A stretch of DNA of 64,000 nt. It comes from Rubrivivax sp. A210 (GTDB lineage: Bacteria > Pseudomonadota > Gammaproteobacteria > Burkholderiales > Burkholderiaceae_C). A program made the translations under genes and the position numbers. This document shows positions 3,466 through 20,563 of this stretch, one piece after another (positions within the stretch are counted from its first letter, which is position 1; every line of letters begins with the position of its first letter). Location: assembly GCF_904426505.1 (NCBI RefSeq), contig NZ_CAJGBN010000004.1, positions 1 through 64,000 on the forward strand. Reading direction: 5' to 3'. The notes beneath the pieces were generated by a model, which was not told the DNA's origin, made no database searches, and saw nothing but the letters and a program-made list of their open reading frames with translations.

Positions 3466-6400
3466 TCACGCCTTGACCGCAACCCGGGTCGCCCCACCAT
3501 GCTGCGTGACGCGAGGCCTGCAGCGCAGTTTGACGGCACCCTTCGAGAAGGACTCGTCCGTCGCCTTGCTTGACCAGACGTAGGCCTCACCCGCCTTCAG
3601 CAAGGCCATGCGCTCAGGCGTCAGATTGCCCAGCGCGGCGTTGGCCTTCTGAATGTGCTTCAGCCAAGCGGGCGAGTTGAACTTGTGCAGGATGATCTGG
3701 CTGGACAGTTCGATCAGGCTGACCGGCACGGACGGCGGGTCTTGGCTGGCCACCATGATGCTGACGCCCTTGTGCCGCATCTCTCGAACCACTTCGATCA
3801 GCCCGGCGACCAGATCCGGGCTTTCGATGTACTTATGGGCCTCGTCGAACACCACCAGTTTGTTGAAGTTGCGTCCATCGATCCGTGCATCAGCAAAGAG
3901 CTGCAGGAGCACGACGAAGAGCCCTAGAGCCTGATCCTTCTCGATGTACTCATCCCGAAGGTCGACGATGATCAATCGCCCGGGCTTGACGACTTCGGTG
4001 AGCGAAGCCGAATCATTGATGTAGTCGGCCGCCAACTCCAGGCGCATGCGAGCCAATTCCTTCAAATGCTCTGGTATCGACGACGCCTCGACACCTGCGC
4101 GGAGTCCTTCAAGAGAAATGTCGTCGCGCATGGCTTTCATGATGCGCATGATCTGGCGGATGTAGGTGGCTTGATTGCCTACGGCTCCCATCAGGAATTT
4201 CCAGTGCGATGCCTTCAGTTCCGAGGCCGAGAATTGCAAGGGCAGCACTTCGATATCCGGGTACTCCGCCTGCCGCTCCTCTATCTTGTCCGCGGGCACG
4301 AGCAACAAGACATCGTCGAGCGCCTTCGGCTCCGCGCCATACGCTTCCTTCAGCGCCCGAACCTGATCTTCAACACTGTTCGCGTCCACCATCGACGTGA
4401 ACTCGGGCTTGTAGTCCATGGTCGGGCTGTAGTGGAAGATCACCGTGGACAGCGGCTCGGGCAGGCAGTTGATGCCAGGGATTGCCAACGAGGCCATCTC
4501 CGCGACGCTGCCCAACGTGTAGCTCTTTCCGCCCCCCTGAACGCCGAACAGACTGATGGTGTGGGTCTGATTGAGGTCGAGCGCAACCTTGCGCCCGGAC
4601 ACCTCGCCCAGCAAGCCGTACTGAGGCGTTGTCCCGGTGGCGCCGAGCATGATGTCGTAGGCAACCTGGGTCTCGGGAGAGTGGCCAGCCGAAGCTCGAG
4701 GGGCAATGGTTGGGCCTGCCGCTGACACCACCGCCTCGAACTCTGGCACCAGAGTTAGGTTCTGATCGTCCGCAGCGGGTGGCGTTGGTTCCGGAGTTGC
4801 GATCAATGCTTGGGCAGGTGTGATCGCTGCAGGGGTCAACGTTGACAAAGGCCGGGGCTCGCGCGCCTTCGGCGCGGGGATGGTCTCGGGCGGCCGATAG
4901 GTCTCACGTGGGCTGTCTTCCCATGCCAAAGTGCGATCACGGGGTCGACTCAGAAACGCCGCGGTTTCAAATGTCGGCACGGCTGGTGCCAACTCTCTGC
5001 GGCGCAGCAGTTCCTGGGTGACTTCCCGCGCCACATCTGCAGGCCGGGACGTCAGCAAGTTGGCGATGGTCTCGGAATCGGTCACTGCCGACTCGACCAG
5101 CTGCCGAATGAGGTCACTGCCGATTCGGTAAAACTCGATGCCGTTCTCGTGCTCGGCCGGCTCGGTACCTGGTTTGCTGAAGTCAAATACCACGGCGCTG
5201 CGCGTGAACTTCAGCGTGTAAGGTCGCTGGTCCAGGCGGCGCAAGAAGTAGTGCGCTTCCTCTGCAGCTTCGGGCAAAACGACGCCATACCGCTCTGATC
5301 GATCCAAGTAGAAACCCAGCAATGCTGCGAGGTCACGGTTCTTGATCGGTCGATCCGGACGATCCACCTCAGCGCGCTTAGGGTCGAAGTGGTAGGAGAG
5401 GACTTGCTCCGTCTGCGTGATTTGCTCGGCAATCGACGCCTTCAATTGGCCGTAGGCCGCCACATCGCCCACTTGGCTGTAGCACTTGACCTCAACCAAC
5501 CTGCAAGTCACTTCGCGGCTGGCCGGGTCAAGATCGAACAGGGCAAGATCGGTGCGCCTGAAGTTGACCTCATCCCCCATCTCTGCCGCGTTCTGCCTGA
5601 GGGCCTTGTACAACTCCAGATGCGCGTCCAAGGGCACCACGACCTGATTCTGGAAAACGCCTTGATGCTCGAGGAACAAGCGGGAAAGGGCAAGCCCCAT
5701 CGCCTCGGCTCTTTGCGTCGACGAGGACAACAACTTCAGGGCCAAGCGGCCCGACAGCGAGCGCAACTGATCCAGCATCACCAAGGCGTGCCGACTTGTA
5801 CTTGGCAGGCCATACTCGCCCAGAATGGGCACCAACAGTGACTCCAGCTCGGCGACCGAGCGCGAAGTGATGGCCAAGCGATGGCTCATCGCATTCGCCA
5901 TGTCAGGAGAGTGGTCGATCAGATAGTCTGGGCGCGTGGAGTGCCGGCGGTGATCAAAGAACTCGATGCCAAGGTTCCGGTCAATCGTGAGCACCCAATC
6001 GCTCACCTCGTGTACCTGATGGAGCATCGCACGCTCGTCGGCCGACAGGCTCAATGCCACCACGGGCCGCGCATGGGGCAAGTACTGGCTGCGTGCGACG
6101 GTCGCCACGGCAACCGATACTGCGCGTGAGATGCCCCCCATCAGATCAGACAACGCCTCGGCTCCCTCAATCGGCTGCGGGGCGCCATGCAGTGGGCGCC
6201 GAAGCCAGGTAATGGATTGCTCGTCCTCCCGATAGTCCACTTCGAAGGGCTGAACCAGGCCATGGACAAAGGAGGAATCATCCGAGTCGTGGACGTCTAC
6301 GGCGCGAATCTCCTCGGCGGGAAACAAGTCAAACAGGAAGGACAGATGTGCTGCATGCGAGTCCGGTTCGTCTCGGAACTCCTTGATCGCGCGGACAGCC

Positions 6401-9018
6401 AAGCGCAGCTTAGGGCGCAGATGGCTGTCCGTTGGCGTTGAAAATGCATCCGCTTCCTTCGCGCTGGTTCCGGAGTCCGGGGCCAGTAACTCCAGCAAAG
6501 CGTCCCCAGTCGATGGGGCCGCCGGATCGAGGACGAACAGCCTGATGTCGTAGCGAAGATCAGCAAACTCGGGGTGACGCTGCAGTGTCAGCAGTATCTC
6601 GGCCAGGGCGGCTGCTCGACCAGCGTTGAAAGCGTTGATCGTCAGGGTTTCGACATAGGGGTGCTGAATCAGATAGCGCTGTACCCTCGCCGCTAGATAG
6701 GCGCTGTCGATGGTCGCCCCCCCGATGGCAGGCTCGGGCAAACCGAGCGCTGCACACACCTCCCCAATCAGACCCCGGGGATCCTTCTCGTCGGTTGCGG
6801 CATACAGTGACCAGAACGGGCTGATGCTGTCCACGGCCAGCGCCGTGCGACCCAATTCCTCGCCGAACGGAAGCACCGGAGGAAAAGCGGCCGGCGCAAG
6901 CTGCTTGATCACCGCGTCGCGGGTCGGGACCACGAACTCACGACTGCTCGACCGACTTCGCTCTACCCAGGTCTGTCCGAGCTGGCTCCAGGCGACATGC
7001 CAGTTCGCGCGCAGAGGATGCGTCGGGCCGAGAAGCACGACGTCTCGCCGCCTGCCTTGATAGTCCTCCAACACCAGGGCCACCGAATCGATGGTGAGTG
7101 CGCAGCGCGCCTCATCCAGTGCCTGGCGCGCGACCGCGGCGTCGGTTGAACCGGACCGGGCCAGAACGGCATCAATCCAGGCCAGATAGGCGGCGGCATA
7201 GTTTTGAGCCGGCTCCTGCAGGTGCAGAAGATCGCTCGCCTGCATGATCAATCGCTGATCCCCTTGCAGGATGGCGCCAAAGAGCGTGGCCCGAGCTTCT
7301 CTGAATCGCGTCACCTCGTCCGAGGCGGGCCATTTGAAGCTTGTCGTGGCGCGCGTGGCAACACCGGAGGCGCTGACCGAAAGCCGCAATCGGTTGAGGC
7401 CATCCGGATCCTCAAGAAACGCACGTTCCAGGCTGGCCAATACACCAGACACCAAGACGTTCGCCTTTCCCTCCTTGCCTAGCCGAATCTCCAGCGTTTC
7501 GCCGCTGGTCGCGGCCTTGCTGCTTCGCTCCACCCACGCACACCCCGTGATCGTGACGGAACTGGGGTCACGATCCTGAGTCACCGCCGCGAAACGCGCG
7601 CGCAGCAACGCATGCATCAGGCTGGGCTCTCGCGGCACCGCACGCTGAGGAGGCTCCACCTCCACCTCGTCGTCGGTGACGACGTAGAAGAGGTCGCTCT
7701 CGTTGGCATTGACATGCGTCTCCGACGCATCGCCGTTGAAGCGAACAGGGTTGCCTTCGCCGTCAGCGAGCGGAATGCGGTCTCCGTCTTCGGCTTCCGC
7801 ATACACACGCACGAAGTGCCAGCCTTCCTCCCAGTCGATCTTGCCAATTGACGGAAAGGAGATCACACCCGAATCCGTGCCCTTGGTCCATGCCGCTTTG
7901 CGTCGACGCAATCCGGTTGGACCGTTGTCGCGCGAAACAACCTCCGCCACGAAGCGGGACAAGCCCTCCACCTTCGATGGCACGGGATCGACCCGGAACG
8001 CGACACTGAACTTCTTCAGTCCGGTCTTCGAGATGGGCAACACCCTGTGACCCATCAACTCGGCCAGACGAGGGTCTTGGTTGTCAGCCTTCACCACCGG
8101 CAAGTCGGGCAGGACGACATCACCAATAAAGATCGCGTCCGGGTTGACGCCCCCGTCCTCAAACAGCCATTTGTTGAAAGCCAGAGGCCAATGCAAGCGG
8201 TCGCGGACGATCAGCGAAGTCCAATCCTTTGGGTTGGCAACACCGACGCGCGAAAAGAACTCACCCAGCTGCCGGCAGAACACGGGGTCAAGCAGGCCCA
8301 AGTCCAGGGCGCGCACGCGCTCGGTCTTGTTGGACCAGGTGACGCGCTCCACACACTCGCGGTTGCGTGAGATCCGTGCAGGCGCGCGCTCGGCCTGTTG
8401 AAACAGCTCGAAATCGGGCACCAGAGCCAGCTCGAAAAGCGCCGCGCCCATGGCATCCTGATCAAAGTCGTTGACCTGGCAGGTGAGCAGATACCGGGCC
8501 ACTGCCGCATCGCCGGCAAACTGCCAGCGGGCCTCGCTTCGGCGCAGTTCACCCAAGCAGGCCTCGACGGCCACACGGAGATGGACCGGAACCTGCGTCA
8601 CCAGCTGAGCATTCAGCTCGGTGTAGGCGCCCTCGATCGACACCTCTTCAAACGTCGCTACGCCAAAGGAGTCTTCTGCCGAGGCACGCAGATCGTTGGG
8701 TACGAACACCATCAACGGTGGTCGCAGCTCGTCATCGGGCAGGGGGTTTCGCAGCTCCACCAGCTTGGTGCTGCTGACGGCCAGCTCTGGTGCCATTGCA
8801 CGGAGGCTGTCGTCTGCCAGAACCACCACGTTGGCTGAGGGAACGGCCGCACGGAGGCCGCCTGCCAAGCGAATCATCAGCTCACGATCCAAATCGGTGA
8901 CGCGCATGCAATGCCCGAGGTCTCGGGCCGCCAGAAGCCTGGACAGCTTGGGCAGCAGCACCGATTCAAGTGCGGCGTTCAGTTCCTGGCTGGTGAGTTC
9001 ACGCAGTCCCTGGCTCAT
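3466..9018 (-). CDS. mad8: MAD8: giant HerA-like ATPase with PD-(D/E)xK-like motif
   Basis: 1,850 residues, last gene of the defence operon. The C-terminal third is a HerA/FtsK-type P-loop ATPase. Walker A is GVQGGGKSYT near residue 1490 and Walker B is KLVVFDEAHKY near residue 1720, followed by a VASQDP sensor segment typical of HerA relatives. In the middle, near residues 1150-1180, ALFDLD then LVEVKC about 14 residues on has the spacing of a PD-(D/E)xK nuclease core. The N-terminal part is not recognised. The gene starts by ATGA overlap with mad7. Members of this family are called the MAD8 ATP-binding protein; large HerA-type proteins such as DptH also act in DNA-modification-linked restriction. 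DNA translocation and cleavage are inferred, not shown. Confidence 0.85.
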   Translation of the reverse strand: MSQGLRELTSQELNAALESVLLPKLSRLLAARDLGHCMRVTDLDRELMIRLAGGLRAAVPSANVVVLADDSLRAMAPELAVSSTKLVELRNPLPDDELRPPLMVFVPNDLRASAEDSFGVATFEEVSIEGAYTELNAQLVTQVPVHLRVAVEACLGELRRSEARWQFAGDAAVARYLLTCQVNDFDQDAMGAALFELALVPDFELFQQAERAPARISRNRECVERVTWSNKTERVRALDLGLLDPVFCRQLGEFFSRVGVANPKDWTSLIVRDRLHWPLAFNKWLFEDGGVNPDAIFIGDVVLPDLPVVKADNQDPRLAELMGHRVLPISKTGLKKFSVAFRVDPVPSKVEGLSRFVAEVVSRDNGPTGLRRRKAAWTKGTDSGVISFPSIGKIDWEEGWHFVRVYAEAEDGDRIPLADGEGNPVRFNGDASETHVNANESDLFYVVTDDEVEVEPPQRAVPREPSLMHALLRARFAAVTQDRDPSSVTITGCAWVERSSKAATSGETLEIRLGKEGKANVLVSGVLASLERAFLEDPDGLNRLRLSVSASGVATRATTSFKWPASDEVTRFREARATLFGAILQGDQRLIMQASDLLHLQEPAQNYAAAYLAWIDAVLARSGSTDAAVARQALDEARCALTIDSVALVLEDYQGRRRDVVLLGPTHPLRANWHVAWSQLGQTWVERSRSSSREFVVPTRDAVIKQLAPAAFPPVLPFGEELGRTALAVDSISPFWSLYAATDEKDPRGLIGEVCAALGLPEPAIGGATIDSAYLAARVQRYLIQHPYVETLTINAFNAGRAAALAEILLTLQRHPEFADLRYDIRLFVLDPAAPSTGDALLELLAPDSGTSAKEADAFSTPTDSHLRPKLRLAVRAIKEFRDEPDSHAAHLSFLFDLFPAEEIRAVDVHDSDDSSFVHGLVQPFEVDYREDEQSITWLRRPLHGAPQPIEGAEALSDLMGGISRAVSVAVATVARSQYLPHARPVVALSLSADERAMLHQVHEVSDWVLTIDRNLGIEFFDHRRHSTRPDYLIDHSPDMANAMSHRLAITSRSVAELESLLVPILGEYGLPSTSRHALVMLDQLRSLSGRLALKLLSSSTQRAEAMGLALSRLFLEHQGVFQNQVVVPLDAHLELYKALRQNAAEMGDEVNFRRTDLALFDLDPASREVTCRLVEVKCYSQVGDVAAYGQLKASIAEQITQTEQVLSYHFDPKRAEVDRPDRPIKNRDLAALLGFYLDRSERYGVVLPEAAEEAHYFLRRLDQRPYTLKFTRSAVVFDFSKPGTEPAEHENGIEFYRIGSDLIRQLVESAVTDSETIANLLTSRPADVAREVTQELLRRRELAPAVPTFETAAFLSRPRDRTLAWEDSPRETYRPPETIPAPKAREPRPLSTLTPAAITPAQALIATPEPTPPAADDQNLTLVPEFEAVVSAAGPTIAPRASAGHSPETQVAYDIMLGATGTTPQYGLLGEVSGRKVALDLNQTHTISLFGVQGGGKSYTLGSVAEMASLAIPGINCLPEPLSTVIFHYSPTMDYKPEFTSMVDANSVEDQVRALKEAYGAEPKALDDVLLLVPADKIEERQAEYPDIEVLPLQFSASELKASHWKFLMGAVGNQATYIRQIMRIMKAMRDDISLEGLRAGVEASSIPEHLKELARMRLELAADYINDSASLTEVVKPGRLIIVDLRDEYIEKDQALGLFVVLLQLFADARIDGRNFNKLVVFDEAHKYIESPDLVAGLIEVVREMRHKGVSIMVASQDPPSVPVSLIELSSQIILHKFNSPAWLKHIQKANAALGNLTPERMALLKAGEAYVWSSKATDESFSKGAVKLRCRPRVTQHGGATRVAVKA

Positions 9019-10688
9019 GTGCGCGCTCCTTCCGCCCGTTCTGCAATCGTGTAGCGCGGCACCACCGTTTGCGTCACATAGGCGTCGGACAGGTCTCGAT
9101 AGAAGCCGATTTCACGCAGGCGCCCCGTGAAGGCTTGCACGTTGCTCCGCAAGGCCTTGCGCTCGTCGATGGTGGGCGTGGCGAAGCCTTCGCCGGGCGG
9201 CAGTTGATCGATGCACAGGCCGTAGCGCTCGCGCAGGAAGCGCAGCAGATCATCGATCCGCATTTCACCCGTGAAGTAGCCTTGCTCCCCTCCCGGCCGC
9301 AAGACCGCGATCTGGAGAAGCACCTCCAGCAAGCGGCTTTCGAGCGTGAAGCGTCGTGGCGCGTTGCGTGCGCGGGTTTGCGCAAGCAGCGCACCCGACT
9401 TGTTCTTCAGCATCGTCGCATCCAGCGACTCGATGATGTACTTCCGGTGAAAGGCGCCGCGAATGGCCAACAGAATCTCGATGTAGGTTTCGAAATCCGA
9501 AAGCCCCATTCTGGTGATGGCCTCGACCTCGCCATCCAATCCCGCATCACCCTCCGACAGGGACTCCAGAAGCCCGGCCAGGCGCTCACCGAAGAACTTG
9601 TCGCGCTCCTCCGCGAAAGGCACGCCTTGCAGCCCGTACAGCTCGCCAACCGAGAACACCGTGTTCAAGGGGCGAATCAGCTTGCCGCGCCGGACCAGAT
9701 GCTCGGAGAACTCGTCGAGCTTCTTGGCCATGAAGTAGGCGCGGACAAAGCTTGGGATGTGCCGGTAATACCCATCGGCACTGCGCTCGGCGAGCGTCGC
9801 CGTTGCCGAATCCGCGCTGCCGGAGAGATCGACAAACAGGCCCAGCTTGTAGGGGCAATCCCCCTGCGGATCACGCGGCTGCCGCGGCTTCATCGGGCAG
9901 GCCGACTCGGCGCACAGCGAATTCGCACCCTCCAGCTTCTGCCAGGCAGGCAGCAGCTTTAACAAGCGCAAGTGATACAGCGCCAGGTGGAAGGAGAGCA
10001 GCACCTTCAGGTACTCCACCATCACCGAGCGCGGCATGAAGGGCTTGTAGAACAGCAGTCGCTGGATGTCCTCGGCCATCAGGTCCGCCGACCCGATGCA
10101 CACCGGTGCGAAGCGGTCGCCTCCGGCACGCGTGTCTGCCGTGTCCTTGCGCTGGGACAAGAAGTGCAGCAGCGTGGCCGTCTCGATGTCCGTCAATGCC
10201 TTGTCGTTCAACTCGCGCGTGAGCTTGTCGAAGCCATCGAAGAAGAAGCCCTTCAGGTGCTCGATGGCCTTGTGGCCCGAAAGACCCCGGGCGTGGTGCA
10301 GCATCTGGTAGAGGTGCTGGGCCGCGCCGTAGTCGCGCGAATGCTTGGGGTTGCGAAAGCGGTAGGTGTAGCCATGCAGGGGACGTGGGCCGGCCACGGC
10401 CGCGTTCTTCCTGCCCCGGTTGACGATGTCCATCAGGTGGGTCTCCACCCAACGCTCCACCATGTCCCGGTGCTGCGCGAAGCCCAGGAACTTGTCGCGG
10501 GCGTCGAGGATGTCGTCCACGAACTTGTCAACGGTCAGCTCGCGCTTGTCGCGAAACACGCTGGGATAGCCACCGTGCTCCAGGCGCTCGAATAAGCCCG
10601 TGAGCACCCGATCCATCTCGATGGTCTTGAAGTCGAGATGGCTGATTTTCGGGAGTCGGAACTCCCGGTCTTTCTTCTGCAATGCCAT
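9015..10688 (-). CDS. mad7: MAD7: defence-system protein of unknown fold
   Basis: 557 residues with no motif I can assign to an enzyme. It is soluble, rich in charged helices, and carries a small cysteine cluster (CAESACPM then DCPY) near residues 260-285 that could bind a metal. The C-terminal 100 residues (FTGEMRIDDLLRFLRERYGL to the end) look like a winged-helix type module. It overlaps mad8 by ATGA and shares one base with the mad6 stop (TGATG), so it is translated in step with the two large ATP-binding proteins and probably acts in a complex with them. The name rests on operon position between the MAD6 kinase and MAD8 ATPase. A resemblance in position and size to DptG is a hypothesis only. 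Confidence 0.72.
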   Translation of the reverse strand: MALQKKDREFRLPKISHLDFKTIEMDRVLTGLFERLEHGGYPSVFRDKRELTVDKFVDDILDARDKFLGFAQHRDMVERWVETHLMDIVNRGRKNAAVAGPRPLHGYTYRFRNPKHSRDYGAAQHLYQMLHHARGLSGHKAIEHLKGFFFDGFDKLTRELNDKALTDIETATLLHFLSQRKDTADTRAGGDRFAPVCIGSADLMAEDIQRLLFYKPFMPRSVMVEYLKVLLSFHLALYHLRLLKLLPAWQKLEGANSLCAESACPMKPRQPRDPQGDCPYKLGLFVDLSGSADSATATLAERSADGYYRHIPSFVRAYFMAKKLDEFSEHLVRRGKLIRPLNTVFSVGELYGLQGVPFAEERDKFFGERLAGLLESLSEGDAGLDGEVEAITRMGLSDFETYIEILLAIRGAFHRKYIIESLDATMLKNKSGALLAQTRARNAPRRFTLESRLLEVLLQIAVLRPGGEQGYFTGEMRIDDLLRFLRERYGLCIDQLPPGEGFATPTIDERKALRSNVQAFTGRLREIGFYRDLSDAYVTQTVVPRYTIAERAEGART

Positions 10689-13600: not shown

Positions 13601-14851
13601 GCTCAGGAACTCGCCCGCCCTGTCCCATACCGTGGTGGGGTCGCCCGCGAAGGGGCGTTCCGCGGTGAACAGCTCGTAGAGGATGACGCCCGCCGAGAAA
13701 ATGTCCGATGCCGTGGATGCTGCGCCGGGCTCGCGAAACGCCTCGGGCGCCACATAGGCCCGCTCGACCAGATCAATGATGTCCGCCGCGATGGTGAGGC
13801 TGCGGTCCGCGCTGGGCTTGGCGAAATCGAAGTCCGTGATGCGGGTGGTGCCGTCCTGGCCGATCAAGATCGCGCCCGGGGCCAGATTGCGATGCACCAC
13901 GCCGTGGTGGTGTGCATGGGTCAGCGCGGCCAGCAGGTCTTTGGCGACACGCCACTTCTGATCCAGGGTCAGCGTCAGCTGCGGCCTGGCCATGTGCACG
14001 GTGAGGGCCTGGCCGGGCGCATCGTCCAGGATCAGGATGAAGGACTTGTCGTCGTCGGTCGGGAAGAAATCCCGTGCGGCGACGATGTTGGGGTGCAGGG
14101 GCAGTCTGGACAGCGCCCGGTAGGCATTGGCAATGCGATTGACCTGGGCCTTGCGCACCTCTTCAGGCTGGTAGGGGTCTGCCTGGTACACGCGCAGGCG
14201 GGCCGTGCCCCCCGCAAAGGCGTTCTCGGCCCGGAACTCGGTGTAGGCCTGGGCCGCGCCCAGCTTCTCCTTGACTTCCCAGTGCCCGAAGCGCTGCACG
14301 GCCTTGGCAGGCTTGACCACCTTCAAGGCGTGCAGGATCAACCCCTGCTGCTGCAGGATGCTCCTGGAAAAGCGCGACGGGATGCGGGTGGCGTCTTTGA
14401 AGTAGCGCTCGGCATCCTTGAGCTTCACGGTGCGGTCCGCGTCCAGCTGCTCGCGGTCGATCAGGTGCGCGTCGGGCGCGGTCAGCAGGATGGCCGCATC
14501 CACATAGATGCCGTCCAGCTCAAGCCGCCCCGGATTGGCCTGGGTCACCAGGCCCTTCACCGTGCGGGCGTGCCCGCTCAGCTTGCCCAGCGGTGACGGA
14601 TAGGGCGCGCGTCCCTCGGGGTACCACTTGTTGCCGTACACATCGATGCTGCCGCGCGTGCCCTTCACGTCGATGAGGTACAGCGCGTGCGGCGTCAGCA
14701 GCGCGATGTCGATCTCGAAGCGTTCGCCCTGGCGCTCGATCTCGAAGTTGTGCAGCAGCACATAGCTGTCTGGCAAGCGATCCCGAAGGTAGGCAATCGC
14801 CGTGCGTTCGGCGTCGTTGACCGGCTGGCCTATCGGGATCACTTTGGCCAT
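10688..14851 (-). CDS. mad6: MAD6: NERD + pseudokinase + Ser/Thr kinase + P-loop ATPase
   Basis: 1,387 residues in four modules. Residues 10-120 form a NERD-type nuclease-related domain (FEID at 45-48, DVKG at 61-64). Residues 188-450 form a Hanks-type kinase fold with a decayed active site: HRN at 320-322 in place of HRD, and DFD at 340-342. Residues 499-760 form an intact-looking kinase: GRGSFGV 507-513, Lys529, HCDIKPRN 620-627, and a DFN metal loop at 639-641. After about residue 800 comes a P-loop domain with Walker A SGNAGDGKT (841-849) and a cysteine motif CERCDLKDSC further on. This matches the MADS protein kinase, the likely signalling component. The target of phosphorylation is unknown. 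Its start lies one base beyond the mad5 stop. Confidence 0.88.
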   Translation of the reverse strand: MAKVIPIGQPVNDAERTAIAYLRDRLPDSYVLLHNFEIERQGERFEIDIALLTPHALYLIDVKGTRGSIDVYGNKWYPEGRAPYPSPLGKLSGHARTVKGLVTQANPGRLELDGIYVDAAILLTAPDAHLIDREQLDADRTVKLKDAERYFKDATRIPSRFSRSILQQQGLILHALKVVKPAKAVQRFGHWEVKEKLGAAQAYTEFRAENAFAGGTARLRVYQADPYQPEEVRKAQVNRIANAYRALSRLPLHPNIVAARDFFPTDDDKSFILILDDAPGQALTVHMARPQLTLTLDQKWRVAKDLLAALTHAHHHGVVHRNLAPGAILIGQDGTTRITDFDFAKPSADRSLTIAADIIDLVERAYVAPEAFREPGAASTASDIFSAGVILYELFTAERPFAGDPTTVWDRAGEFLSKPSALRPELNDAFDAWLQSLCAFDEHQRPPASSALAALNALLQPVALPAAGPAEAPRSAPIEAPDDQADYLNLPAGYRLTHKFIVEKKLGRGSFGVVYKVIDTLGDVARTVKLIVSDRHSTLDRLKKEYRHLAHIPEHPHVVRVLDADVIPGRDIPFLVFEYVEGSDVGDMIQERLLSPEDALELGKQVIEGLVHLHAQGFHHCDIKPRNLLWTQRGAKIIDFNVSVRADDKESRGGGSRRYLPPDFDPEVIPHNGERADRDLYALGLTLYEALTSRYPWDTTEPPINKPAPDPRELSGFADLAPELVAVVLKAIAPRRAERYANATDFRDALVQLRHARRIQTLSLAAVAAAAGSGHAALAESAPNSNAFVSHLLTLYSQSRRSNAGTRGMDALGFSAYVDTALDRALLPAVLQGEFRLVLISGNAGDGKTAFLQRLEKEVEARGGSAHRGLPNGSELSLDGKRYLINYDGSQDEGNKDNNQVLLDFLAPFKGSDARAWQPRETRLIAINEGRLVDFLAAHEGEFPALTALVRRAFSTGEADAGVAVVNLNLRSVVADADGGSILERTLQSIVQARNWTACERCDLKDSCYALHNARSFQDEIAGPRLLERLKTLYTMAHLRGRLHITMRDLRSALSFMLIGNRDCGEIHAMYAAGKHGDVARSFYFNSWMGGGQPTSDRLLTLLSGLDVGKQEDPRFDRGLDFVQPDDRALFRFERRGQFDFEVLKRLFGDLPRGLSDSSVRQRARKHREYVAMARRKHFFERRDTSWEKMLPYRSAKRMVEIVRGATPIAELTREILHAINRGEGLQRPERLGASLALQLRQVEHGTVRSYRLFPVEGFGLQVQDFAAKARFVEHLPTGLLLKFQGQGAGAITSELIINLDVFEMLVRLNEGYRPSVEEMQGFYLCLGVFKNSLNAQPYREILLTTTGHDFYRLARHDDGRVEMRLLQGPVTATRKKEAQEHGSRGN

Positions 14852-14852
14852 T

Positions 14853-16253
14853 TCACTCCCCTCGCTGAATTCTTGCTTCGAGCATGTCTCGTGCTTCGCG
14901 CTCCCAAACGCAGGCCTGATCCCTCAGTTCGCGGGCTTGAATGGCAGGGGTACCGATGTGTTCTCGGTCCTCCCGCGAAGGCCACGGCACATGAATCCGC
15001 TTGACACGATGCTCATCGGTGTGAGGAATGCTGGAGCCCGCAGCTTCTCGCGACAGCAGCCGAACCCCGTGCTCGCCGGAGAGCAGCGTGAAGAGATAGC
15101 CACCGTCGATGTCGTCTTCCGGGACGATCCGAATCATGTTGTTGCTGCAGGAGAACCCATCGAGATAGCCACCAACCATCACCGAGCGTCCGATCAAGCC
15201 ACCAAGCTGACCGGCCTCCTGCACAACGATCATTCCTTTTCGCAATAGCAAGCGATATTCAGCAGCCAAGCGCTTCATCAGGTACTTTTCAGAGGTGGGT
15301 GCCAGTTCGAACACGTCCCCTCCCGTGATGTAGGGGCTACCGAACTGCGGGTCGGACGCATACAGCCGCTTAAAGATGCCAGGAATGAAGACCTCGGCTA
15401 CCCCGCTCAACATACGGCTTACCGCCACGCCATCAAACGCGGCACGGGACTCCGCATTGCGGCTGCTGTAGTAGTACGCATCCCCTCGATCCTTAAAGAG
15501 TTCGCTGGAAACTGCGCTGAAGTCTGGCTTTGGCAATAATGCGACTGAAGTTGGCTGCTTGAGGCCAAGCCTCTTGTACAGACGACTGGAAGCCGCGTGC
15601 AACAGTTCGACCGCCTGGGTGCGTACTTGTGCCGCCGCATCGACCTTGGCCGCAATTACTTCTTCGGTCGTTGGGTCAAATCTCGGCACAGGCAAATCGG
15701 CGATGTGCTCAGGCTCGATGTGTTGAATGATGGCGCCATAGGTTCCAGAGACCACCAAGGGCACGCCATAGCGACTGGACAAGAAGGCATACAGGTAGCC
15801 CGGTGGAATGCGCTCTGGGTCGGGCACAACGCGCAATACATCCTCGGAGCATGCAAGGCCCACCATATCGGGTCGAACATACGCCATGCGCCCGATGGTT
15901 CCAGATCGAGTGATCAATGACCACTCTCCTTCGACCAGCAACTTCGGGTTTTTGGCTACTTGTTTCTTCGAGATCAGAGGCAGGCTTGAGAGGTCAGATA
16001 GGCCAATAGCCGAACTTCCCATGTAACGAACCCCATACCGTGAATCGTCTACCCAGGTTCGACTTTCGCGGCCGGAGTCAAACATGCTTAGAGTCACGTC
16101 ACTCAGTCGATCCTTCTTGCATGTGAGTTGCTTTAGTGCTTCCCTCGCCTCCAGCGCACCCGACATATACGGATTGCAATCAAGCCGCCGCCCGCCTTCA
16201 CCGAGCCAGGCAGCGCGGACGATGCGAGCGTTCTTGAAACTGACGAAGCTCAT
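14853..16253 (-). CDS. mad5: MAD5: type I-like DNA specificity subunit (HsdS-like)
   Basis: 466 residues when started at the ATG at 16253, which overlaps the mad4 stop as ATGA; an upstream in-frame ATG (16277) lies inside mad4. Two target-recognition domains with the usual HsdS signatures are visible: the first around GEWSLITRSGTIGRMAYV and GYLYAFLSSRYG, the second around KGMIVVQEAGQLGGLIGR and GYLFTLLSGEHG. Each is followed by a helical spacer (VDAAAQVRTQAVELLHAASS; ARELRDQACVWEREARDMLE). It would pair with MAD2 to set the methylated sequence. Base composition here looks more AT-rich than in the neighbours, common for fast-evolving specificity genes. The recognised site cannot be read from sequence. 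Confidence 0.87.
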   Translation of the reverse strand: MSFVSFKNARIVRAAWLGEGGRRLDCNPYMSGALEAREALKQLTCKKDRLSDVTLSMFDSGRESRTWVDDSRYGVRYMGSSAIGLSDLSSLPLISKKQVAKNPKLLVEGEWSLITRSGTIGRMAYVRPDMVGLACSEDVLRVVPDPERIPPGYLYAFLSSRYGVPLVVSGTYGAIIQHIEPEHIADLPVPRFDPTTEEVIAAKVDAAAQVRTQAVELLHAASSRLYKRLGLKQPTSVALLPKPDFSAVSSELFKDRGDAYYYSSRNAESRAAFDGVAVSRMLSGVAEVFIPGIFKRLYASDPQFGSPYITGGDVFELAPTSEKYLMKRLAAEYRLLLRKGMIVVQEAGQLGGLIGRSVMVGGYLDGFSCSNNMIRIVPEDDIDGGYLFTLLSGEHGVRLLSREAAGSSIPHTDEHRVKRIHVPWPSREDREHIGTPAIQARELRDQACVWEREARDMLEARIQRGE

Positions 16254-16894
16254 GCCGGCACCGCCGCCGGAAACCACGCCTGCAATTGCGCCACAAGACG
16301 GCGGAACTCAGCGTCTTCGCACCGGGCCACGGGCACCCGGGTCGCAATCCGCTTGAAGATGGAGGAGGACAGCTTGACGTTGTTCTCCCGCCGCAGCCGG
16401 TTGAACAAGTCCTTGGGGGACGGCGGCTTGGTGGCGTCTTCGGGCCACAGGCCGCGCTGGGCCAGCGTCGCCTTGAGTCCACCCGGGGCATGCAGGCGCA
16501 ATTCTTCGGCCAGCACGGGCGAGTCTTGCCAGATCCACTGTTCCAGCTCCGGGTCGATGGCGATGACGATCACGTCTTCGGGTGCCCAGCCGCCCTGGTG
16601 CAGTTGCGTGCTGACGTTCTGAATGATCCGGGCCTGTCCGGGGGAACCCACCCAGTCGCAGTCGAGCGCCACGACGGCCTTGCGGTGGCTGTGAAAAAAG
16701 GGGCTCAACAGCAGCCCCGCCCGGGTGTTCAAGCCGGGGTCGTTTTGCCCCGCGGCGAAGAAAAGGTCTTCCGCGGCATCAAAGGCGAAGTGGCCGCAGC
16801 CCAGTTGCGCCGCGCGGTCCTCGCGGCCGAGGAAACCCAGAAAGGTCTCGCGCATGGTCTTGTCGGCAACAAAGAAGAGGCAGTCCCGCTTCAT
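16250..16894 (-). CDS. mad4: MAD4: small TOPRIM-like protein
   Basis: 214 residues, overlapping mad3 (ATGA) and mad5 (ATGA). The segment VVALDCDWVG (about 73-82) and the later VIAIDPELEQWIW (about 109-121) resemble the DxD strand and the Glu/Trp segment of TOPRIM domains found in OLD-type nucleases and related DUF4435-like proteins. The N-terminal acidic residue of a classic TOPRIM site is not obvious, so catalysis is uncertain. It follows an OLD-like ATPase (mad3), which suggests a split ATPase-TOPRIM pair. The name MAD4 is given from its position in the eight-gene set. The fold call is inference. Confidence 0.68.
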   Translation of the reverse strand: MKRDCLFFVADKTMRETFLGFLGREDRAAQLGCGHFAFDAAEDLFFAAGQNDPGLNTRAGLLLSPFFHSHRKAVVALDCDWVGSPGQARIIQNVSTQLHQGGWAPEDVIVIAIDPELEQWIWQDSPVLAEELRLHAPGGLKATLAQRGLWPEDATKPPSPKDLFNRLRRENNVKLSSSIFKRIATRVPVARCEDAEFRRLVAQLQAWFPAAVPA

Positions 16895-18252
16895 CCCAGA
16901 ATCCCCGCTGCGAACAGGCTGCCGAGGTCTATGCCGCCGCGCCAGTCTCTGAGGCGCGGGTGCGCTTCACCGGCCACGACCACCACGCCGTTTTCGGGGG
17001 TCTGCCGGGCGCACAGCAATTGCTCAAGCTTGCTGGCTGCCAGAACGACGGGCGAGTGGGAAGAAATCCAGACCTGGCTGCCGTACAGCGATTCCAGAGA
17101 TTGCAGGATGGCCTCGATGGCACTGGGATGGATGCCGTTCTCGGGCTCCTCGGTGACCACCAGCCGGGGGGCATCGGGCAGGTAGGCGAGCAGGGTGAGG
17201 GTCAGAATCCGCAAGGTGCCATCCGACAGGCCGCTGGAAGTGACGCTGTAGCCGCCGCTGTAGCGCAGGCTGAAATAGGCGCGATGGTCTTCCTCGCGCT
17301 CCTTGATGTCGATGTCTTCGACTTGCGGCAGCGCGGTCTTGACGTGGTCAACCCAGTCATTGAAGTCGCGGCTGCGATAGCTCTTCTGTTCCTCGGCCGT
17401 GGCCTCGTCGGGCAGGCCTTGGCGCTTGAGGTTCAAGGCCAGCCAAGGCAGGTTGAGGGCGGAGGCGATCAGCGTCTTTTCCTGCCCCGTTGCGCTGGCG
17501 GCGCGCAGCTGTTCCCACTCCGGCGCCAGAAACACCACCTTCTCGGTCAACAGCTCGTAGAGCCAGCCCGCGGCGGGGAAGGCGTCGGGCTTGTACTTCA
17601 CGGCCGACATGGCGAGCAGGCCCGGCTTGATGCGAACCTTGTCTTCCCGATCGGCATCGCGCAGGCCGGTCTTGGCCTCGTCGACGAAAACGGCGGGGCC
17701 GCCGTACTCGCGGCGCAGCATGAAGTGCCAATCTTCCCTGTCCTGGTTGGCTTCGCCCAGCAGGCCGCCCACGGACCGATCAGGTGCGGCGGCTGGCGGG
17801 TAGGCGAAGAGGTATTCGTTCTTGACGTTGAGTTCCCGCTCGTTGAAGACCTCCAGGCGCAACTCGTAGCGCAGGTGACCAGGCCATTTGGCGGGTGAGT
17901 TGCGAAACACCTCTTGCTGGCGCTTGCTCTTGATGTTGGCGAGCAAGGCATCGGCCCAGGCGTGGCGCAGATCCTCGGGCAGCTCGACTTCAAGTGCCAA
18001 GGAGAAATCGTCACCACGCCCCGCAAACACCAGCTCGCGAAGCGCGGCCGCCCGCGCGGGCAGGTTGCCCCGCTTCAAGGTGAAGACGGAGGCAATGTTG
18101 TCGGCGCGCAGCAGTTCGCCGAAGAGGCTGGGCAAATCGATCAAGGTGGTCTTGCCAGACCCGTTGGCGCCGACGATGACCTGGAATGCGGACATGTCCA
18201 CGCCCAGCTGCTCGAAGCAGCGATAGCGCGTGGCTTCGAGGCGCGTGATCAT
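16891..18252 (-). CDS. mad3: MAD3: AAA (OLD/RecF-like) ATPase
   Basis: 453 residues. The ATG at 18252 is chosen because it overlaps the mad2 stop (ATGA) and begins with the family opening MITRLEATRYRCFE. The longer frame upstream lies inside mad2. Walker A VGANGSGKTT at 27-36, an ABC-type signature region (LSDGTLRILTL), Walker B LVVTEEPENGIHP near residue 364, and the switch histidine ISSHSP just after it are all present. The layout is that of AAA_15/AAA_21 ATPases such as OLD nucleases, but the C-terminal TOPRIM domain is absent here and a TOPRIM-like protein is encoded next (mad4). Likely role: ATP-dependent DNA-end or phage-DNA sensing in the defence complex (inference). Confidence 0.86.
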   Translation of the reverse strand: MITRLEATRYRCFEQLGVDMSAFQVIVGANGSGKTTLIDLPSLFGELLRADNIASVFTLKRGNLPARAAALRELVFAGRGDDFSLALEVELPEDLRHAWADALLANIKSKRQQEVFRNSPAKWPGHLRYELRLEVFNERELNVKNEYLFAYPPAAAPDRSVGGLLGEANQDREDWHFMLRREYGGPAVFVDEAKTGLRDADREDKVRIKPGLLAMSAVKYKPDAFPAAGWLYELLTEKVVFLAPEWEQLRAASATGQEKTLIASALNLPWLALNLKRQGLPDEATAEEQKSYRSRDFNDWVDHVKTALPQVEDIDIKEREEDHRAYFSLRYSGGYSVTSSGLSDGTLRILTLTLLAYLPDAPRLVVTEEPENGIHPSAIEAILQSLESLYGSQVWISSHSPVVLAASKLEQLLCARQTPENGVVVVAGEAHPRLRDWRGGIDLGSLFAAGILG

Positions 18253-20291
18253 TTGCCGGGCTCCGGGTGTTGGGCGCGGAACTCGCCGTAGGCTTTGGCG
18301 ATTTCGGGCAGATCGTCGTCGAGGATTCGCTCCTTGCGGTGCAGCGTGCGCACCTGCAGGCCGCCGCCGATGCGGACCTTCTCCTCGTGGCTCACGTCGC
18401 GGAGGATTTCTTCGCCGTCCGGGTGGCGCTTGTAGAGCGTGTTGCCACGGCGGTCGAAGCCCACCTTCTCGGCCACCGCCATGAACACGGGGTAATCCTT
18501 CTTCTGGCCCAGGTCTTCTGCCTGAATCACCTCGGCAGGCTTGCGCTTGAGGAAGAGCAGGCTGGTGAGGATGTTGACGTTGGCCTCGACGATGAAGGAC
18601 TCCACCGGCAGGTCGATGCTGGCCAGCACCCAGCAGTGGCGAAGAATCCAGTAGCGGATGTACTCGTCGCCGGGGTTGCCCAGGATGCCATCGGGCAAGA
18701 CGATGCCCGCCCGGCCGCCCGGCTTGAGCCATTTCACGCACCGTTCGACGAACAGAACTTCCGGCGAGACCGCCGGCTTGAGGGCATGGGTCATCACGAA
18801 GCCATCGCCCTGCCGCTCCCAGCGGCGTGCCAGCTCGTACTGTTCCAGGATGGTTTTCTCGGTGACCGGGATGTCCGAGCCGAACGGTGGGTTGGTCATC
18901 AAGACATCGATGCTGCCCAGCGGTATGCTGAGCTTGGCCGGGGCCACGCCGGGCAGGTCACCGCGCGGGAATTCCAGCGAGTTCATGTGATACAGCTGAC
19001 CGAGCGAATTGCCCGCCATCATCACGTTCATCTGCGCGGCCTTCACGAGGAAGGGATCGAAGTCGGCGCCGAACAGGTTCTTGGCCGCGTAGTTGGCGAG
19101 CCGGTCACGGATGGAGACGAACTCCTCGGTGTTCTCGTCGCCAGCCTTGATGCGCTTTTCTTCGTGAAAGACCTTGTTCAGGTAGTTCAGGGTTTCGACC
19201 AGGAAGCCGCCCGTGCCGCAGGACGAATCCAGCACCCGCTCGTGCTCTTTGGGGGCCAGCATCTTGACCACCAGGCTGATGGCACCGCGCGGCGTGAAGT
19301 ACTGGCCGCGATCTCCGCGCAGGTTGGTACCCACTATCTCCTGGTAGGCCGTGCCTTTGGCATCCACGTCGGTGCGGCCGAAGTCGTAGCGGGCCAGTTC
19401 CGAGACGATGAAGGCCAGGGCCCGGTCGGACAGGGTGATTTCTTCGTTGCCCTTGAAGAGGCCGCCGTACTTCTTCTTCACCGCCTCGAAGAGCGGCTTG
19501 ATGCGAAGGCGGATCTGCTCGCGGCCGGCGGCCTCGAACGGCTCGAACGGCCCCACCCAGAAGCGACGCGCGTCGTTGGGCTGCTGTTCGTCATGCATCT
19601 TGCAGAAGATGAGGTACAGAAACTGCCAGAAGGCAGCGTCCTTGGGCATGCCTTCGTTGCCGTGGATGTAGTTGTGGCAGCGGCGGAACGCGGTGCGCAA
19701 CATCACCGGATCGGCACGACGCAGGCGCCCCATCGAGCGGCCTTCGACGCTGAAGCTGTCGTCACCCAAAGGCCAGTCGCCGATGGGCTTGAACTTGGTA
19801 TCGAAGCGGGTGACCGCCTTCTTGAAGAAGAAGAACTCCAGGCCGTTGGTCCACAAGCCGTATTCGCAGCTCTCGACTTCGGCCATCACGGCTTCCAGCA
19901 CATCGAACTCTTTGCGGGCTTCGTCGGGGTCGCGCATGCGGTACGCGCCTTTGGTGCCGAGCCTGGGTTCCTTTTCTACAACCACGGCCCGGTAAAGGTT
20001 GTCTGCGGTATGTGCCGTGCCGGGCTTGAAGATGGCGATATCGAGCTTGCGATTCTTGCCATCCGCCTTGACCTTGAAGTCGGGCTGCATGTCTTCGGCG
20101 GCAATGCCGTACTCATGGATGATGGCGCGCGCGATGCGCTGGCGCACTTGCTCCTTGTCGCTGTCCTTCACCGGGTTGCCGGTGATGTAGTCAAAGACCT
20201 TGCCCTCTTCGAGCGCGCTCTCGGGCGCCGGGGTTTCTTGGTCAGGGTCGCTCATGTCGTTGTTGTCCTGTGCGGAGCGCTGCTTAGGCAT
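18249..20291 (-). CDS. mad2: MAD2: N6-adenine DNA methyltransferase (HsdM-like)
   Basis: 680 residues from the ATG at 20291, which has GGGAG about 9 bases upstream and overlaps the last codons of mad1. Another ATG exists at 20255. An N-terminal half includes a type I restriction R-N/HSDR-N like segment (residues about 20-230, with DIAIFKPG and VVVEKEPR). The catalytic domain follows, with SAM-binding motif I VLDSSCGTGGF (near residue 355) and the N6-adenine motif NPPFGSD (near residue 470). It would methylate host DNA under direction of MAD5. The lack of any HsdR gene nearby argues against a plain type I restriction system and for the multi-gene MADS. Confidence 0.9.
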   Translation of the reverse strand: MPKQRSAQDNNDMSDPDQETPAPESALEEGKVFDYITGNPVKDSDKEQVRQRIARAIIHEYGIAAEDMQPDFKVKADGKNRKLDIAIFKPGTAHTADNLYRAVVVEKEPRLGTKGAYRMRDPDEARKEFDVLEAVMAEVESCEYGLWTNGLEFFFFKKAVTRFDTKFKPIGDWPLGDDSFSVEGRSMGRLRRADPVMLRTAFRRCHNYIHGNEGMPKDAAFWQFLYLIFCKMHDEQQPNDARRFWVGPFEPFEAAGREQIRLRIKPLFEAVKKKYGGLFKGNEEITLSDRALAFIVSELARYDFGRTDVDAKGTAYQEIVGTNLRGDRGQYFTPRGAISLVVKMLAPKEHERVLDSSCGTGGFLVETLNYLNKVFHEEKRIKAGDENTEEFVSIRDRLANYAAKNLFGADFDPFLVKAAQMNVMMAGNSLGQLYHMNSLEFPRGDLPGVAPAKLSIPLGSIDVLMTNPPFGSDIPVTEKTILEQYELARRWERQGDGFVMTHALKPAVSPEVLFVERCVKWLKPGGRAGIVLPDGILGNPGDEYIRYWILRHCWVLASIDLPVESFIVEANVNILTSLLFLKRKPAEVIQAEDLGQKKDYPVFMAVAEKVGFDRRGNTLYKRHPDGEEILRDVSHEEKVRIGGGLQVRTLHRKERILDDDLPEIAKAYGEFRAQHPEPGK

Positions 20292-20499
20292 TGCGCGGCT
20301 CCCGGTCGTCAAAGTCATCGCTGCTGGCAGCGGCGCCGCCCTCGCGCACCCAGGCGTCCACGTCTTCCTTCTTGAACTTCCAGAAGCGCCCGACCTTGTG
20401 CCCCGGCATGCCCTTGGAGGTCACCCAGGTGTAGATCGTGTCTTTGGCCACGCCGAGGTAGTCGGCGATTTCATCGACGGATAGCCAGCGGTCGTCCAT
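20284..20499 (-). CDS. mad1: MAD1: excisionase/MerR-type helix-turn-helix protein
   Basis: 71 residues, first gene of the defence operon. The ATG at 20499 begins MDDRWLSVDEIADYLGVAK, a HTH_17/AlpA-type DNA-binding fold (helix-turn-helix residues about 6-30, then the wing GHKVGRFWKFKKEDVDAWV). The tail is acidic and disordered. A longer frame to 20796 has no family similarity and no good RBS. Proteins of this type are small regulators, so it may control the operon through the repeats at 20564-20603; this is inference. Confidence 0.8.
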   Translation of the reverse strand: MDDRWLSVDEIADYLGVAKDTIYTWVTSKGMPGHKVGRFWKFKKEDVDAWVREGGAAASSDDFDDREPRNA

Positions 20500-20563
20500 G
20501 ACTTCGTCCAGGTGGTTTGATCGCCCGTTCGGCGGCAGTTGCGCAGAGTCTAGGTCAATCAAA

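What the first reader, a model, noticed from the sequence alone, without database searches (positions are those of the whole stretch)
3466..20499. Complete eight-gene MADS-type defence operon
Eight co-directional genes run HTH, N6-methylase, OLD-like ATPase, TOPRIM-like protein, HsdS-like, kinase, unknown protein, HerA-like ATPase, with overlaps or 1-base gaps throughout. This is the content and order known for the methylation-associated defence system described in Pseudomonas. All eight seem intact, so it is likely active in this betaproteobacterium. It is the strongest candidate for the notable system in the window.
Basis: partly seen in the sequence, partly recalled or inferred. Interest (0 to 1): 0.9.

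Follow-up and report, generated by a model that had tools for sequence, protein, structure and literature searches.

The report
Intact MADS anti-phage operon, composite build
A bacterium carries a complete copy of the known eight-gene MADS phage-defence system, and comparing it with relatives suggests that MADS is a layered machine: a DNA-marking and DNA-cutting core plus a replaceable two-gene module that probably serves as a second line of defence.

Summary
The eight genes are real, intact and tightly packed at 3466-20499 on the minus strand. All eight pass NCBI's curated MADS1-8 cut-offs.

The comparison adds three things. (1) The restriction half, the C-terminal part of Mad6 plus Mad7 and Mad8, is distantly homologous to SspF, SspG and SspH (hhalign probability 98.7, 95.5, 96.8). 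Mad8 joins an invariant D/ExK site (20 of 20 rows) with a PD-(D/E)XK-like predicted fold to a HerA ATPase. (2) Mad4 is predicted to have the OLD-type TOPRIM fold. (3) The operon interior, mad3-mad4-mad5, is exchanged between operons whose other proteins are 82-99% identical to the window's, and trees conflict strongly. Mad3-mad4 is deleted in frame in Aeromonas popoffii, absent from four distant MADS-like loci, and a related pair stands apart from MADS in 7 genomes.

Best reading: methylation-coupled SspFGH-type restriction with a replaceable OLD/TOPRIM backup module. Domain content rests on computation; activities and order of action are inferred.

The parts
20284..20499 (-). mad1, HTH_17/excisionase-type DNA-binding protein (71 aa)
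   Evidence: NCBIfam MADS1 95.1 bits (cut-off 80); PADLOC mad1
18249..20318 (-). mad2, N6-adenine DNA methylase with N-terminal HSDR_N-like domain
   Evidence: NCBIfam MADS2 1009 bits; Pfam N6_Mtase and HSDR_N_2; TNPPF motif in the sequence
16891..18252 (-). mad3, OLD/AriA-like ABC ATPase (exchangeable cassette)
   Evidence: NCBIfam MADS3 533 bits; Walker A and TEEPENG motif
16250..16894 (-). mad4, OLD-type TOPRIM nuclease by predicted fold (exchangeable cassette)
   Evidence: NCBIfam MADS4 235 bits; Foldseek top 4 all OLD C-terminal region, prob 0.99-1.00; VIA-align Z 10.2; D11, D78, E116, E118 in 22 of 22 rows
14853..16277 (-). mad5, HsdS-like specificity subunit with exchangeable target-recognition halves
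   Evidence: NCBIfam MADS5 495 bits; C half 83-86% to 3 loci and 19-33% to 9 others
10688..14851 (-). mad6: NERD nuclease, pseudokinase, Ser/Thr kinase, SspF/DndF-like P-loop domain
   Evidence: NCBIfam MADS6 752 bits; Pfam NERD and Pkinase; motif counts over 21 rows
10691..12496 (-). SspF-like part of Mad6 (residues 786-1387)
   Evidence: hhalign against SspF prob 98.7, E 1.8e-16
9015..10688 (-). mad7, SspG-like protein
   Evidence: NCBIfam MADS7 646 bits; hhalign against SspG prob 95.5, E 1.6e-8
3466..9018 (-). mad8, SspH/DndH-like protein with PD-(D/E)XK domain and C-terminal HerA ATPase
   Evidence: NCBIfam MADS8 232 bits; hhalign against SspH prob 96.8, E 2.3e-10
5239..5721 (-). PD-(D/E)XK nuclease core of Mad8 (about residues 1100-1260; D1157, E1176, K1178)
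   Evidence: invariant in 20 of 20 rows; model and fold comparison
3475..4659 (-). HerA-like ATPase domain of Mad8 (residues 1454-1848)
   Evidence: PADLOC mad8 and HerA hits; Walker A and B invariant in 20 of 20 rows
20951..21025 (-). tRNA-Arg(CCG) next to the island
   Evidence: ARAGORN; same tRNA at the matching place in 8 of 8 relatives fetched
20783..20837 (.). terminator-like stretch after tRNA-Arg that matches one relative (L075), so the island probably begins downstream of it and not in the tRNA gene
   Evidence: blastn match to L075 only of 8 relatives, 80% over 56 columns, E 6e-6

Best explanation
This is a complete MADS anti-phage system. Mad2 with Mad5 works like a type I methylase pair and marks the cell's own DNA with N6-methyladenine at a two-part site set by Mad5. 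The C-terminal part of Mad6 with Mad7 and Mad8 forms an SspFGH/DndFGH-type machine: the HerA motor of Mad8 moves on unmarked DNA and its PD-(D/E)XK domain nicks or cuts it, while Mad6's kinase (with its pseudokinase partner) switches the complex and its NERD domain may add a second cut. Mad3-Mad4 is an OLD/PARIS-like pair: the ATPase senses failure or inhibition of the first line and frees the TOPRIM nuclease, which stops the infected cell. Shown here: identity, intactness, domain content, homologies, conserved sites, and exchange or loss of the mad3-mad4 and mad5 modules. Inferred: all activities, the order of events, and the second-line role of Mad3-Mad4.
For: Identity. Restriction half related to SspF, SspG, SspH: with PADLOC hits between single proteins (an SspH protein hits the mad8 model over the HerA part with 85 bits). 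Mad8 D1157, E1176, K1178 in 20 of 20 rows. In the Mad8 fold comparison the rows with Z of 5 or more are dominated by McrC, HamA and SduA, with Cfr10I and a Shedu nuclease below them; I know these as PD-(D/E)XK enzymes (recalled). Mad4 fold. Core/cassette split. Tree conflict: p 4e-97 (mad3) and 5e-5 (core); 4e-107 (mad4). Loss. Related pairs apart from MADS. DndFGH nickase and translocase activity in print: PMC11662687, abstract start seen in listing. PARIS AriA/AriB mechanism: PMC12409363, passage read. OLD-TOPRIM pairs proposed as backup layer in BREX: PMC12839542, passages read.
Against: No activity was measured. The Mad8 nuclease fold match is middling: best Z 6.9, no Foldseek match at E <= 0.001, and unrelated folds such as LytR-family proteins among Foldseek's rows at E 0.2. 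Position 80 of Mad4, the second D of a TOPRIM DxD, is not conserved: D in 3, E in 11, and H, A or Q in 8 of 22 rows. Mad4 comes out nearest OLD, and no AriB is among the 50 rows listed. The SspFGH profiles are thin (3 or 4 rows). For the two solo ATPases tested, PADLOC ranks HEC-01A and AriA above mad3, and its mad4 model hits only 1 of 3 solo Mad4-like proteins tested, so those pairs are relatives and may not be Mad3-Mad4 proper. The A. popoffii deletion may mark a decaying locus, because mad1 is missing too. The conflict tests used groups chosen after seeing the identity tables.
Confidence: 0.6

Rival explanations
1. Mad3-Mad4 belongs to the primary restriction step. The OLD-like ATPase is the DNA sensor and Mad4 the enzyme that cuts phage DNA, and their variation reflects different phage DNA targets, not a backup role.
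For: They sit between the two methylation genes in all 13 loci of the close set that keep mad3-mad4 (12, L030) and in L087 and L088. OLD-family TOPRIM nucleases are in general described as DNA nucleases (recalled).
Against: MADS-like loci without them exist: L031, L032, L033 and L091. A related pair also occurs apart from MADS. Mad8 has its own invariant nuclease site.
Confidence: 0.25
2. The variation of mad3-mad4 is fast sequence evolution under phage pressure, not module exchange.
For: Mad3, Mad4 and Mad5 are the three most diverged proteins against 11 of 12 loci compared; against L006 they are Mad5, Mad4 and Mad8.
Against: L006 is 88-100% identical in DNA to L008 over mad2 and mad6-mad8, but 78% or less or unalignable over mad3-mad4, with sharp edges, while Mad3 of L006 is 89% identical to the window's. 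Trees conflict with p 4e-97.
Confidence: 0.05
3. The locus is a BREX/Pgl or type I restriction variant and not MADS.
For: Partial similarity of Mad6 to PglW (215 bits) and of Mad5 to HsdS; Mad2 scores higher against a generic MTase_II model than against mad2 in PADLOC.
Against: PglW score is far below its cut-off of 990; no PglZ, BrxC or HsdR is among the NCBIfam and Pfam hits of the eight; all eight MADS cut-offs are passed.
Confidence: 0.01
4. The operon is intact in sequence but silent or inactive in this host.
For: No sigma-70-like promoter was found by the consensus scan of 20200-21200 (0.1 expected by chance).
Against: All frames are open and active-site residues are conserved. The promoter scan covers one promoter type only.
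Confidence: 0.15

Closest known systems
MADS (methylation-associated defence system), NCBIfam NF047733, NF047734 and NF047737-NF047742
   Same: All eight proteins over the curated cut-offs. The gene order mad1-mad8 here follows NCBI's numbering.
   Different: Nothing that breaks the family. The window's Mad3 and Mad4 belong to a minority type shared with 1 of the 13 other loci that hold both genes (54-58% and 39-45% identical to the other 12).
SspFGH / DndFGH restriction modules
   Same: Three-protein restriction unit of SspF-like P-loop protein, SspG-like protein and SspH-like nuclease-HerA protein in the same order.
   Different: Paired here with an adenine methylase and HsdS-like subunit. 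The HerA part of Mad8 falls outside the hhalign span (columns 566-1283). Phosphorothioation genes elsewhere in the genome were not searched.
PARIS (AriA-AriB) and OLD-family nucleases
   Same: OLD/AriA-like ATPase next to a TOPRIM-fold protein.
   Different: Mad3 scores higher as mad3 than as AriA (154.8 against 95.2 bits). Nearest solved fold of Mad4 is the OLD C-terminal region, and no AriB is among the listed rows.
[quoted passage not shown]
   Same: NERD, inactive kinase, active kinase in a row; described in PMC10853773 and PMC12839542 (passages read).
   Different: In Mad6 the C-terminal half is SspF-like; PMC12839542 describes wHTH and iSTAND domains there in PglW.

Membership tests
MADS | All eight MAD proteins recognised by curated models | tested here: met
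   8 of 8 over NCBIfam cut-off; 8 of 8 hit by PADLOC mad models
MADS | Genes in one operon in the order mad1-mad8 | tested here: met
   Coordinates and frames; order follows NCBI's numbering, the type locus was not seen
MADS | Active methylase with specificity subunit that methylates a defined motif | not testable with these tools
   Motifs present; needs a methylome
MADS | Protects against phage, with self/non-self set by methylation | not testable with these tools
   Needs phage assays
SspFGH/DndFGH | F, G and H homologues encoded in order | tested here: met
   hhalign prob 98.7, 95.5, 96.8, by homology, not by family cut-off
SspFGH/DndFGH | Scores as SspG or DndH itself | tested here: not met
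   Only partial hits, SspG 30 bits and DndH 23 bits, against 856 bits for mad7 and 185 for mad8
SspFGH/DndFGH | Paired with phosphorothioation genes | not tested
   None among the eight genes; the rest of the genome was not searched
PARIS | AriA-like ATPase | tested here: inconclusive
   AriA hit E 1.7e-27 but mad3 model scores better
PARIS | AriB TOPRIM nuclease that cuts tRNA | tested here: inconclusive
   TOPRIM fold nearest OLD; no AriB row listed; activity not testable
BREX type 2 / Pgl | PglW, PglZ and BrxC present | tested here: not met
   PglW-like score 215 against cut-off 990; no PglZ or BrxC among the eight proteins
Type I restriction-modification | HsdR motor-nuclease subunit | tested here: not met
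   Only an HSDR_N-like N-terminal domain inside Mad2; no HsdR helicase among the Pfam hits of the operon

The most novel reading that the evidence does not exclude
MADS is not one eight-gene machine but a stack of three separable layers: a methylase-coupled SspFGH-type restriction core (a minimal form without NERD, kinases, Mad3 and Mad4 appears in L091), a NERD-kinase switch fused to its SspF-like subunit, and an exchangeable OLD/TOPRIM suicide module that operons trade among themselves, lose cleanly, or that lives alone elsewhere in related form. Trading the backup module and the recognition subunit independently would let one chassis change both what it recognises and how it punishes.
Probability: 0.45. 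Interest if true: 0.65.

Novelty: new member of a known kind. Interest (0 to 1): 0.42.

Why it matters
A 2026 review lists MADS among systems whose way of restricting DNA is unknown (PMC12904381, passages read). Linking Mad6-7-8 to SspFGH and pointing to three residues of Mad8 makes that question directly testable. The traded mad3-mad4 module gives a natural experiment: nearly identical operons that differ in the presumed second line of defence, including one that has lost it.

Tried and rejected
Ninth gene: the ORF at 2762-3469 overlaps the end of mad8 but is antisense to a chemotaxis gene and hits no family.

Integration in the tRNA: no direct repeat over 10 bases between the tRNA-Arg side (20501-21060) and the left edge (3201-3700) was found, and none of the eight genes is an integrase. 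The 200 bases printed after tRNA-Arg differ among the 8 relatives fetched (8 chosen from the 36 of 41 genomes with a match, own included), so it looks like a variable site, but the empty site itself was not found.

CRISPR partner: MADS is reported to work with CRISPR-Cas (recalled; title seen in reference lists). No Cas1 was found in the window's genome; CRISPR types without Cas1 were not searched.

MADS in E. coli genomes: no match of mad7 DNA. Mad7 in viral contigs: none. Mad4 in viral contigs and phages: none; in plasmids: one, inside the MADS locus of Piscinibacter. Solved structures by sequence alone gave nothing useful for Mad7 and Mad4 and only HerA-type ATPases for Mad8.

Mad4 of L030 as a separate class: identity is 52-57% to the majority type, although its Mad3 is 95% identical to L008's. 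The test did not reject L030 with L008 and L018 on mad4 (p 0.24), so exchange of mad4 apart from mad3 is not proven.

Degenerate nuclease in Mad2: the N-terminal HSDR_N-like domain shows (E/D)KE where ExK is expected, so it is taken as probably not catalytic; not tested further.

Print search: searches found no paper in their listings that links MADS to SspFGH or DndFGH or describes mad3-mad4 exchange; only the listed rows were looked at, and passages on MADS were read in PMC12904381, PMC12409363, PMC11842806 and PMC12629846, the last of which names MADS among systems at a hotspot of Pseudomonas PAGI-1 islands. The MADS discovery paper (10.1016/j.chom.2024.07.005) is not held and was not read, so it may already say so; what I say of it is recalled.

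Full report
WHAT IS THERE. The eight genes at 3466-20499 (minus strand) are open, co-directional and packed with overlaps or a 1-base gap. Every protein passes the curated NCBIfam cut-off for its MADS family: MAD1 95.1/80 bits, MAD2 1009/720, MAD3 533/420, MAD4 235/160, MAD5 495/400, MAD6 752/460, MAD7 646/410, MAD8 232/175. PADLOC mad models hit all eight, though Mad2 scores higher against a generic MTase_II model (863 against 419 bits). The operon lies on a stretch of 57-66% G+C between flanks of 68-75%, with tRNA-Arg(CCG) about 450 bases before mad1 and a chemotaxis gene after mad8. A terminator-like stretch after the tRNA is shared with 1 of the 8 relatives fetched, L075, so the island probably starts downstream of it. 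In 8 of 8 relatives fetched the tRNA sits at the matching place. I found no flanking repeat, and none of the eight genes is an integrase. The MAD7 model over its cut-off occurs in 1 of 61 genomes of the relatives sample (the window's own), 1 of 369 of the class sample (its own) and 4 of 398 of the phylum sample (its own included).

DOMAINS. Mad1: HTH_17. Mad2: N6_Mtase plus an HSDR_N-like start. Mad3: AAA_21/AAA_15 ABC-type ATPase. Mad5: HsdS-like. Mad6: NERD, two kinase domains, then a P-loop domain. Over 21 rows the NERD residues D48 and K63 are invariant and position 61 is D in 18 and E in 3. The first kinase domain has N for the catalytic aspartate in 19 of 21 rows and D in 2. The second keeps its lysine and both aspartates in 21 of 21 (L019, cut by its contig end, was left out). 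So the first is a pseudokinase in most members and the second looks active.

THE RESTRICTION HALF IS SspFGH-LIKE. Loose hits of the MAD7 model in three other genomes proved to lie in an SspF-SspG-SspH unit (L038, L039, L040). L038 scores 747, 666 and 2374 bits against those PADLOC models; L039 and L040 were not scanned but align with it at 74-82% and 34-39% identity. L041 entered the G and H alignments too, at only 21% and 18%. Profile comparison gave: Mad6 residues 786-1387 against SspF, probability 98.7, E 1.8e-16 over 467 columns; Mad7 against SspG, 95.5, E 1.6e-8; Mad8 against SspH, 96.8, E 2.3e-10 over 631 columns that include the nuclease motif. These E-values are for single comparisons of thin profiles. 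Hits between single proteins and models are weak (Mad7 to SspG 30 bits, Mad8 to DndH 23 bits; SspH of L038 to mad8 85 bits), so this is distant kinship. Prior work described DndFGH as P-loop protein, triple-wHTH protein and a REase-HerA protein, and noted DndF proteins with NERD, inactive and active kinases at the front (PMC10853773, passages read). Mad6 has that architecture. A listing abstract states that DndFGH has nickase and translocase activity (PMC11662687, listing only).

MAD8 CARRIES A NUCLEASE SITE. D1157, E1176 and K1178 are invariant in 20 of 20 rows, Bacteroidota included, as are the Walker A lysine and Walker B residues of the HerA domain. L006 (broken gene) and L020 (cut by its contig end) were left out of that count, and L013 and L014 were never in the set; L020 shows the same nuclease motif. 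A model of residues 1000-1330 (mean pLDDT 75.9) gave no Foldseek match at E <= 0.001; the best was HamA of Hachiman at 8e-3, and unrelated folds stand among the weaker rows. In the VIA-align list the rows with Z of 5 or more are McrC (best 6.9), HamA (6.5), SduA (6.4), a further Hachiman entry (6.3), Upx (5.6), YDJA-YDIS (5.4), the Bacillus cereus Shedu nuclease (5.2), DdmD (5.1) and Cfr10I (5.0). I know McrC, HamA, SduA, Shedu and Cfr10I as PD-(D/E)XK enzymes (recalled); the others I did not check. Z below 8 is weak on its own; the agreement of these rows and the invariant triad make the case.

MAD4 HAS THE OLD-TYPE TOPRIM FOLD. The model of Mad4 (mean pLDDT 77.1) has as its four best Foldseek matches the C-terminal regions of the Xanthomonas and Burkholderia OLD proteins, probability 0.99-1.00, and Z 8.6-10.2 with them in VIA-align; PH0156, a protein of unknown function, scores 9.3, and Gabija GajA 5.5. 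D11, D78, E116 and E118 are invariant in 22 of 22 rows, but position 80 is not conserved (6 of the 7 solo relatives below are among the rows, L110 and L116 are not). That MADS holds an ABC-ATPase/TOPRIM pair is already in print (PMC12409363, passage read).

THE INTERIOR IS TRADED. The genome-contig scan for Mad7 gave 17 loci, and a plasmid search added Piscinibacter (L030). Of these 18, four (L013, L014, L019, L020) end before mad4, so they say nothing on mad3-mad4; 13 hold mad3 and mad4; one (L012) does not. Against ten loci (L006-L011, L017, L018, L021, L030) the window's identities are Mad1 92-99%, Mad2 88-94%, Mad6 84-92%, Mad7 90-95%, Mad8 82-88%. Mad3 is 89% to L006 but 54-57% to the other nine; Mad4 75% to L006 but 39-45% to the other nine; Mad5 72-83% to L007, L017 and L030 but 42-53% to the other seven. 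DNA profiles show sharp edges. L008 against L006 is 92-98% in mad2, 78% or less or unalignable over mad3-mad4, 80-81% or unalignable in the first part of mad5, 95-100% in the second half of mad5, and 88-100% from mad6 almost to the end of mad8 (200-base bins). Mad5 exchange is by halves: the C half is 83-86% identical to three loci and 19-33% to nine. On a tree of Mad2+Mad6+Mad7 from 13 operons (L012 and L022 left out), L006, L007, L008, L018 and L030 form one clade; the Mad3 data reject that clade (p 4e-97), and the core data reject window+L006 as a clade (p 5e-5). The Mad4 data reject the first clade too (p 4e-107). These groups were chosen after seeing the identity tables, so the p values are not those of a planned test. 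Mad3-mad4 type does not follow the Mad5 type: the window and L006 share the first and differ in the second. A test for exchange of mad4 apart from mad3 (L030) was not significant (p 0.24).

IT CAN BE LOST, AND RELATIVES OF IT STAND ALONE. In Aeromonas popoffii (L012) mad2 is followed by a 58-codon frame that joins the first 5 residues of Mad3 (by eye) to the last 52 of Mad4 (69% to that of L007) in frame, then mad5. Mad1 is missing there as well, so decay is possible. Three Bacteroidota plasmid loci (L031, L032, L033) hold mad2, mad5, mad6, mad7, mad8 and no mad3-mad4 match (mad2 of L033 is in two pieces). L091 holds an SspF-like protein without NERD and kinases, then Mad7, Mad2, Mad5 and the first 1200 residues of Mad8, where the stretch ends; upstream lie tRNA genes and a gene that I read as an integrase without a family search. 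On the other side, in the phylum sample the MAD4 model hits 13 of 398 genomes at E <= 0.001, 4 over cut-off. Of the 10 places below the cut-off, 7 are full-length (129-156 bits) and 3 partial. In 7 of these 7 a Mad3-like gene is adjacent and no Mad1, Mad2, Mad5, Mad6, Mad7 or Mad8 match is in the 9-19.5 kb held (in L109 the contig ends 266 bases past the Mad3-like gene). For the two ATPases tested (L111, L114) PADLOC ranks HEC-01A and AriA above mad3, and its mad4 model hits 1 of 3 proteins tested, so these are relatives of the pair. Two lie next to rlmN (L112, L114).

MODEL AND CONFIDENCE. Mad2/Mad5 mark self DNA; Mad6C-Mad7-Mad8 restrict unmarked DNA by HerA-driven movement and PD-(D/E)XK cleavage; the kinase regulates; Mad3-Mad4 is a second line in the manner proposed for OLD/TOPRIM pairs beside BREX (PMC12839542, passages read) and described for PARIS (PMC12409363, passage read). 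Identity as MADS is near certain. The SspFGH kinship I hold at about 0.85, a nuclease role for Mad8 at 0.75, and the second-line role of Mad3-Mad4 at 0.45. A 2026 review calls the restriction mechanism of MADS unknown (PMC12904381, passages read). The discovery paper was not read.

VERDICT. The finding is right and the locus itself is an ordinary full member of a known, uncommon system. What lifts it is the comparative anatomy, which makes the mechanism testable.

Noticed in passing
window 69-126 (contig end): The contig begins with what looks like Illumina adapter read-through (50 of 58 positions match the adapter as I recall it), so the caspase-domain gene at 105-1631 (minus) is cut by an assembly artefact.
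   Followed up: yes
window 105-1631: Peptidase_C14 (caspase-like) domain protein beside a chemotaxis receptor gene.
   Followed up: no
L030 24217-31271: The plasmid MADS of Piscinibacter gummiphilus is followed by TnsA-, TniB- and TniQ-type transposition genes and a recombinase, a possible vehicle.
   Followed up: no
L032 21118-21783: In a Bacteroides MADS-like locus a PP2C-type phosphatase gene overlaps the end of mad8 by 4 bases, a natural partner of the Mad6 kinase.
   Followed up: no
L109-L115: Solo Mad3/Mad4-like pairs, two of them next to rlmN, may be a separate two-gene defence unit.
   Followed up: partly
L007 and L008, from 17250 on: Zoogloea ramigera and Pelomonas sp. share 99-100% identical DNA after mad8 in the bins examined, to 18600, a very recent transfer; the Pelomonas side goes on with helicase, PIN-domain and AAA genes and a tyrosine integrase; Aquitalea (L006) also has a tyrosine integrase on that side.
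   Followed up: partly
L034 7331-18055: NERD-kinase SspF-like, Mad7/SspG-like and DndH/SspH-like genes beside recC, with no Mad2 or Mad5 match in the 20 kb contig.
   Followed up: partly
L012 1-2076: Aeromonas popoffii MADS lacks mad1 as well as mad3-mad4; a Fic-like gene lies upstream (name by my reading).
   Followed up: no
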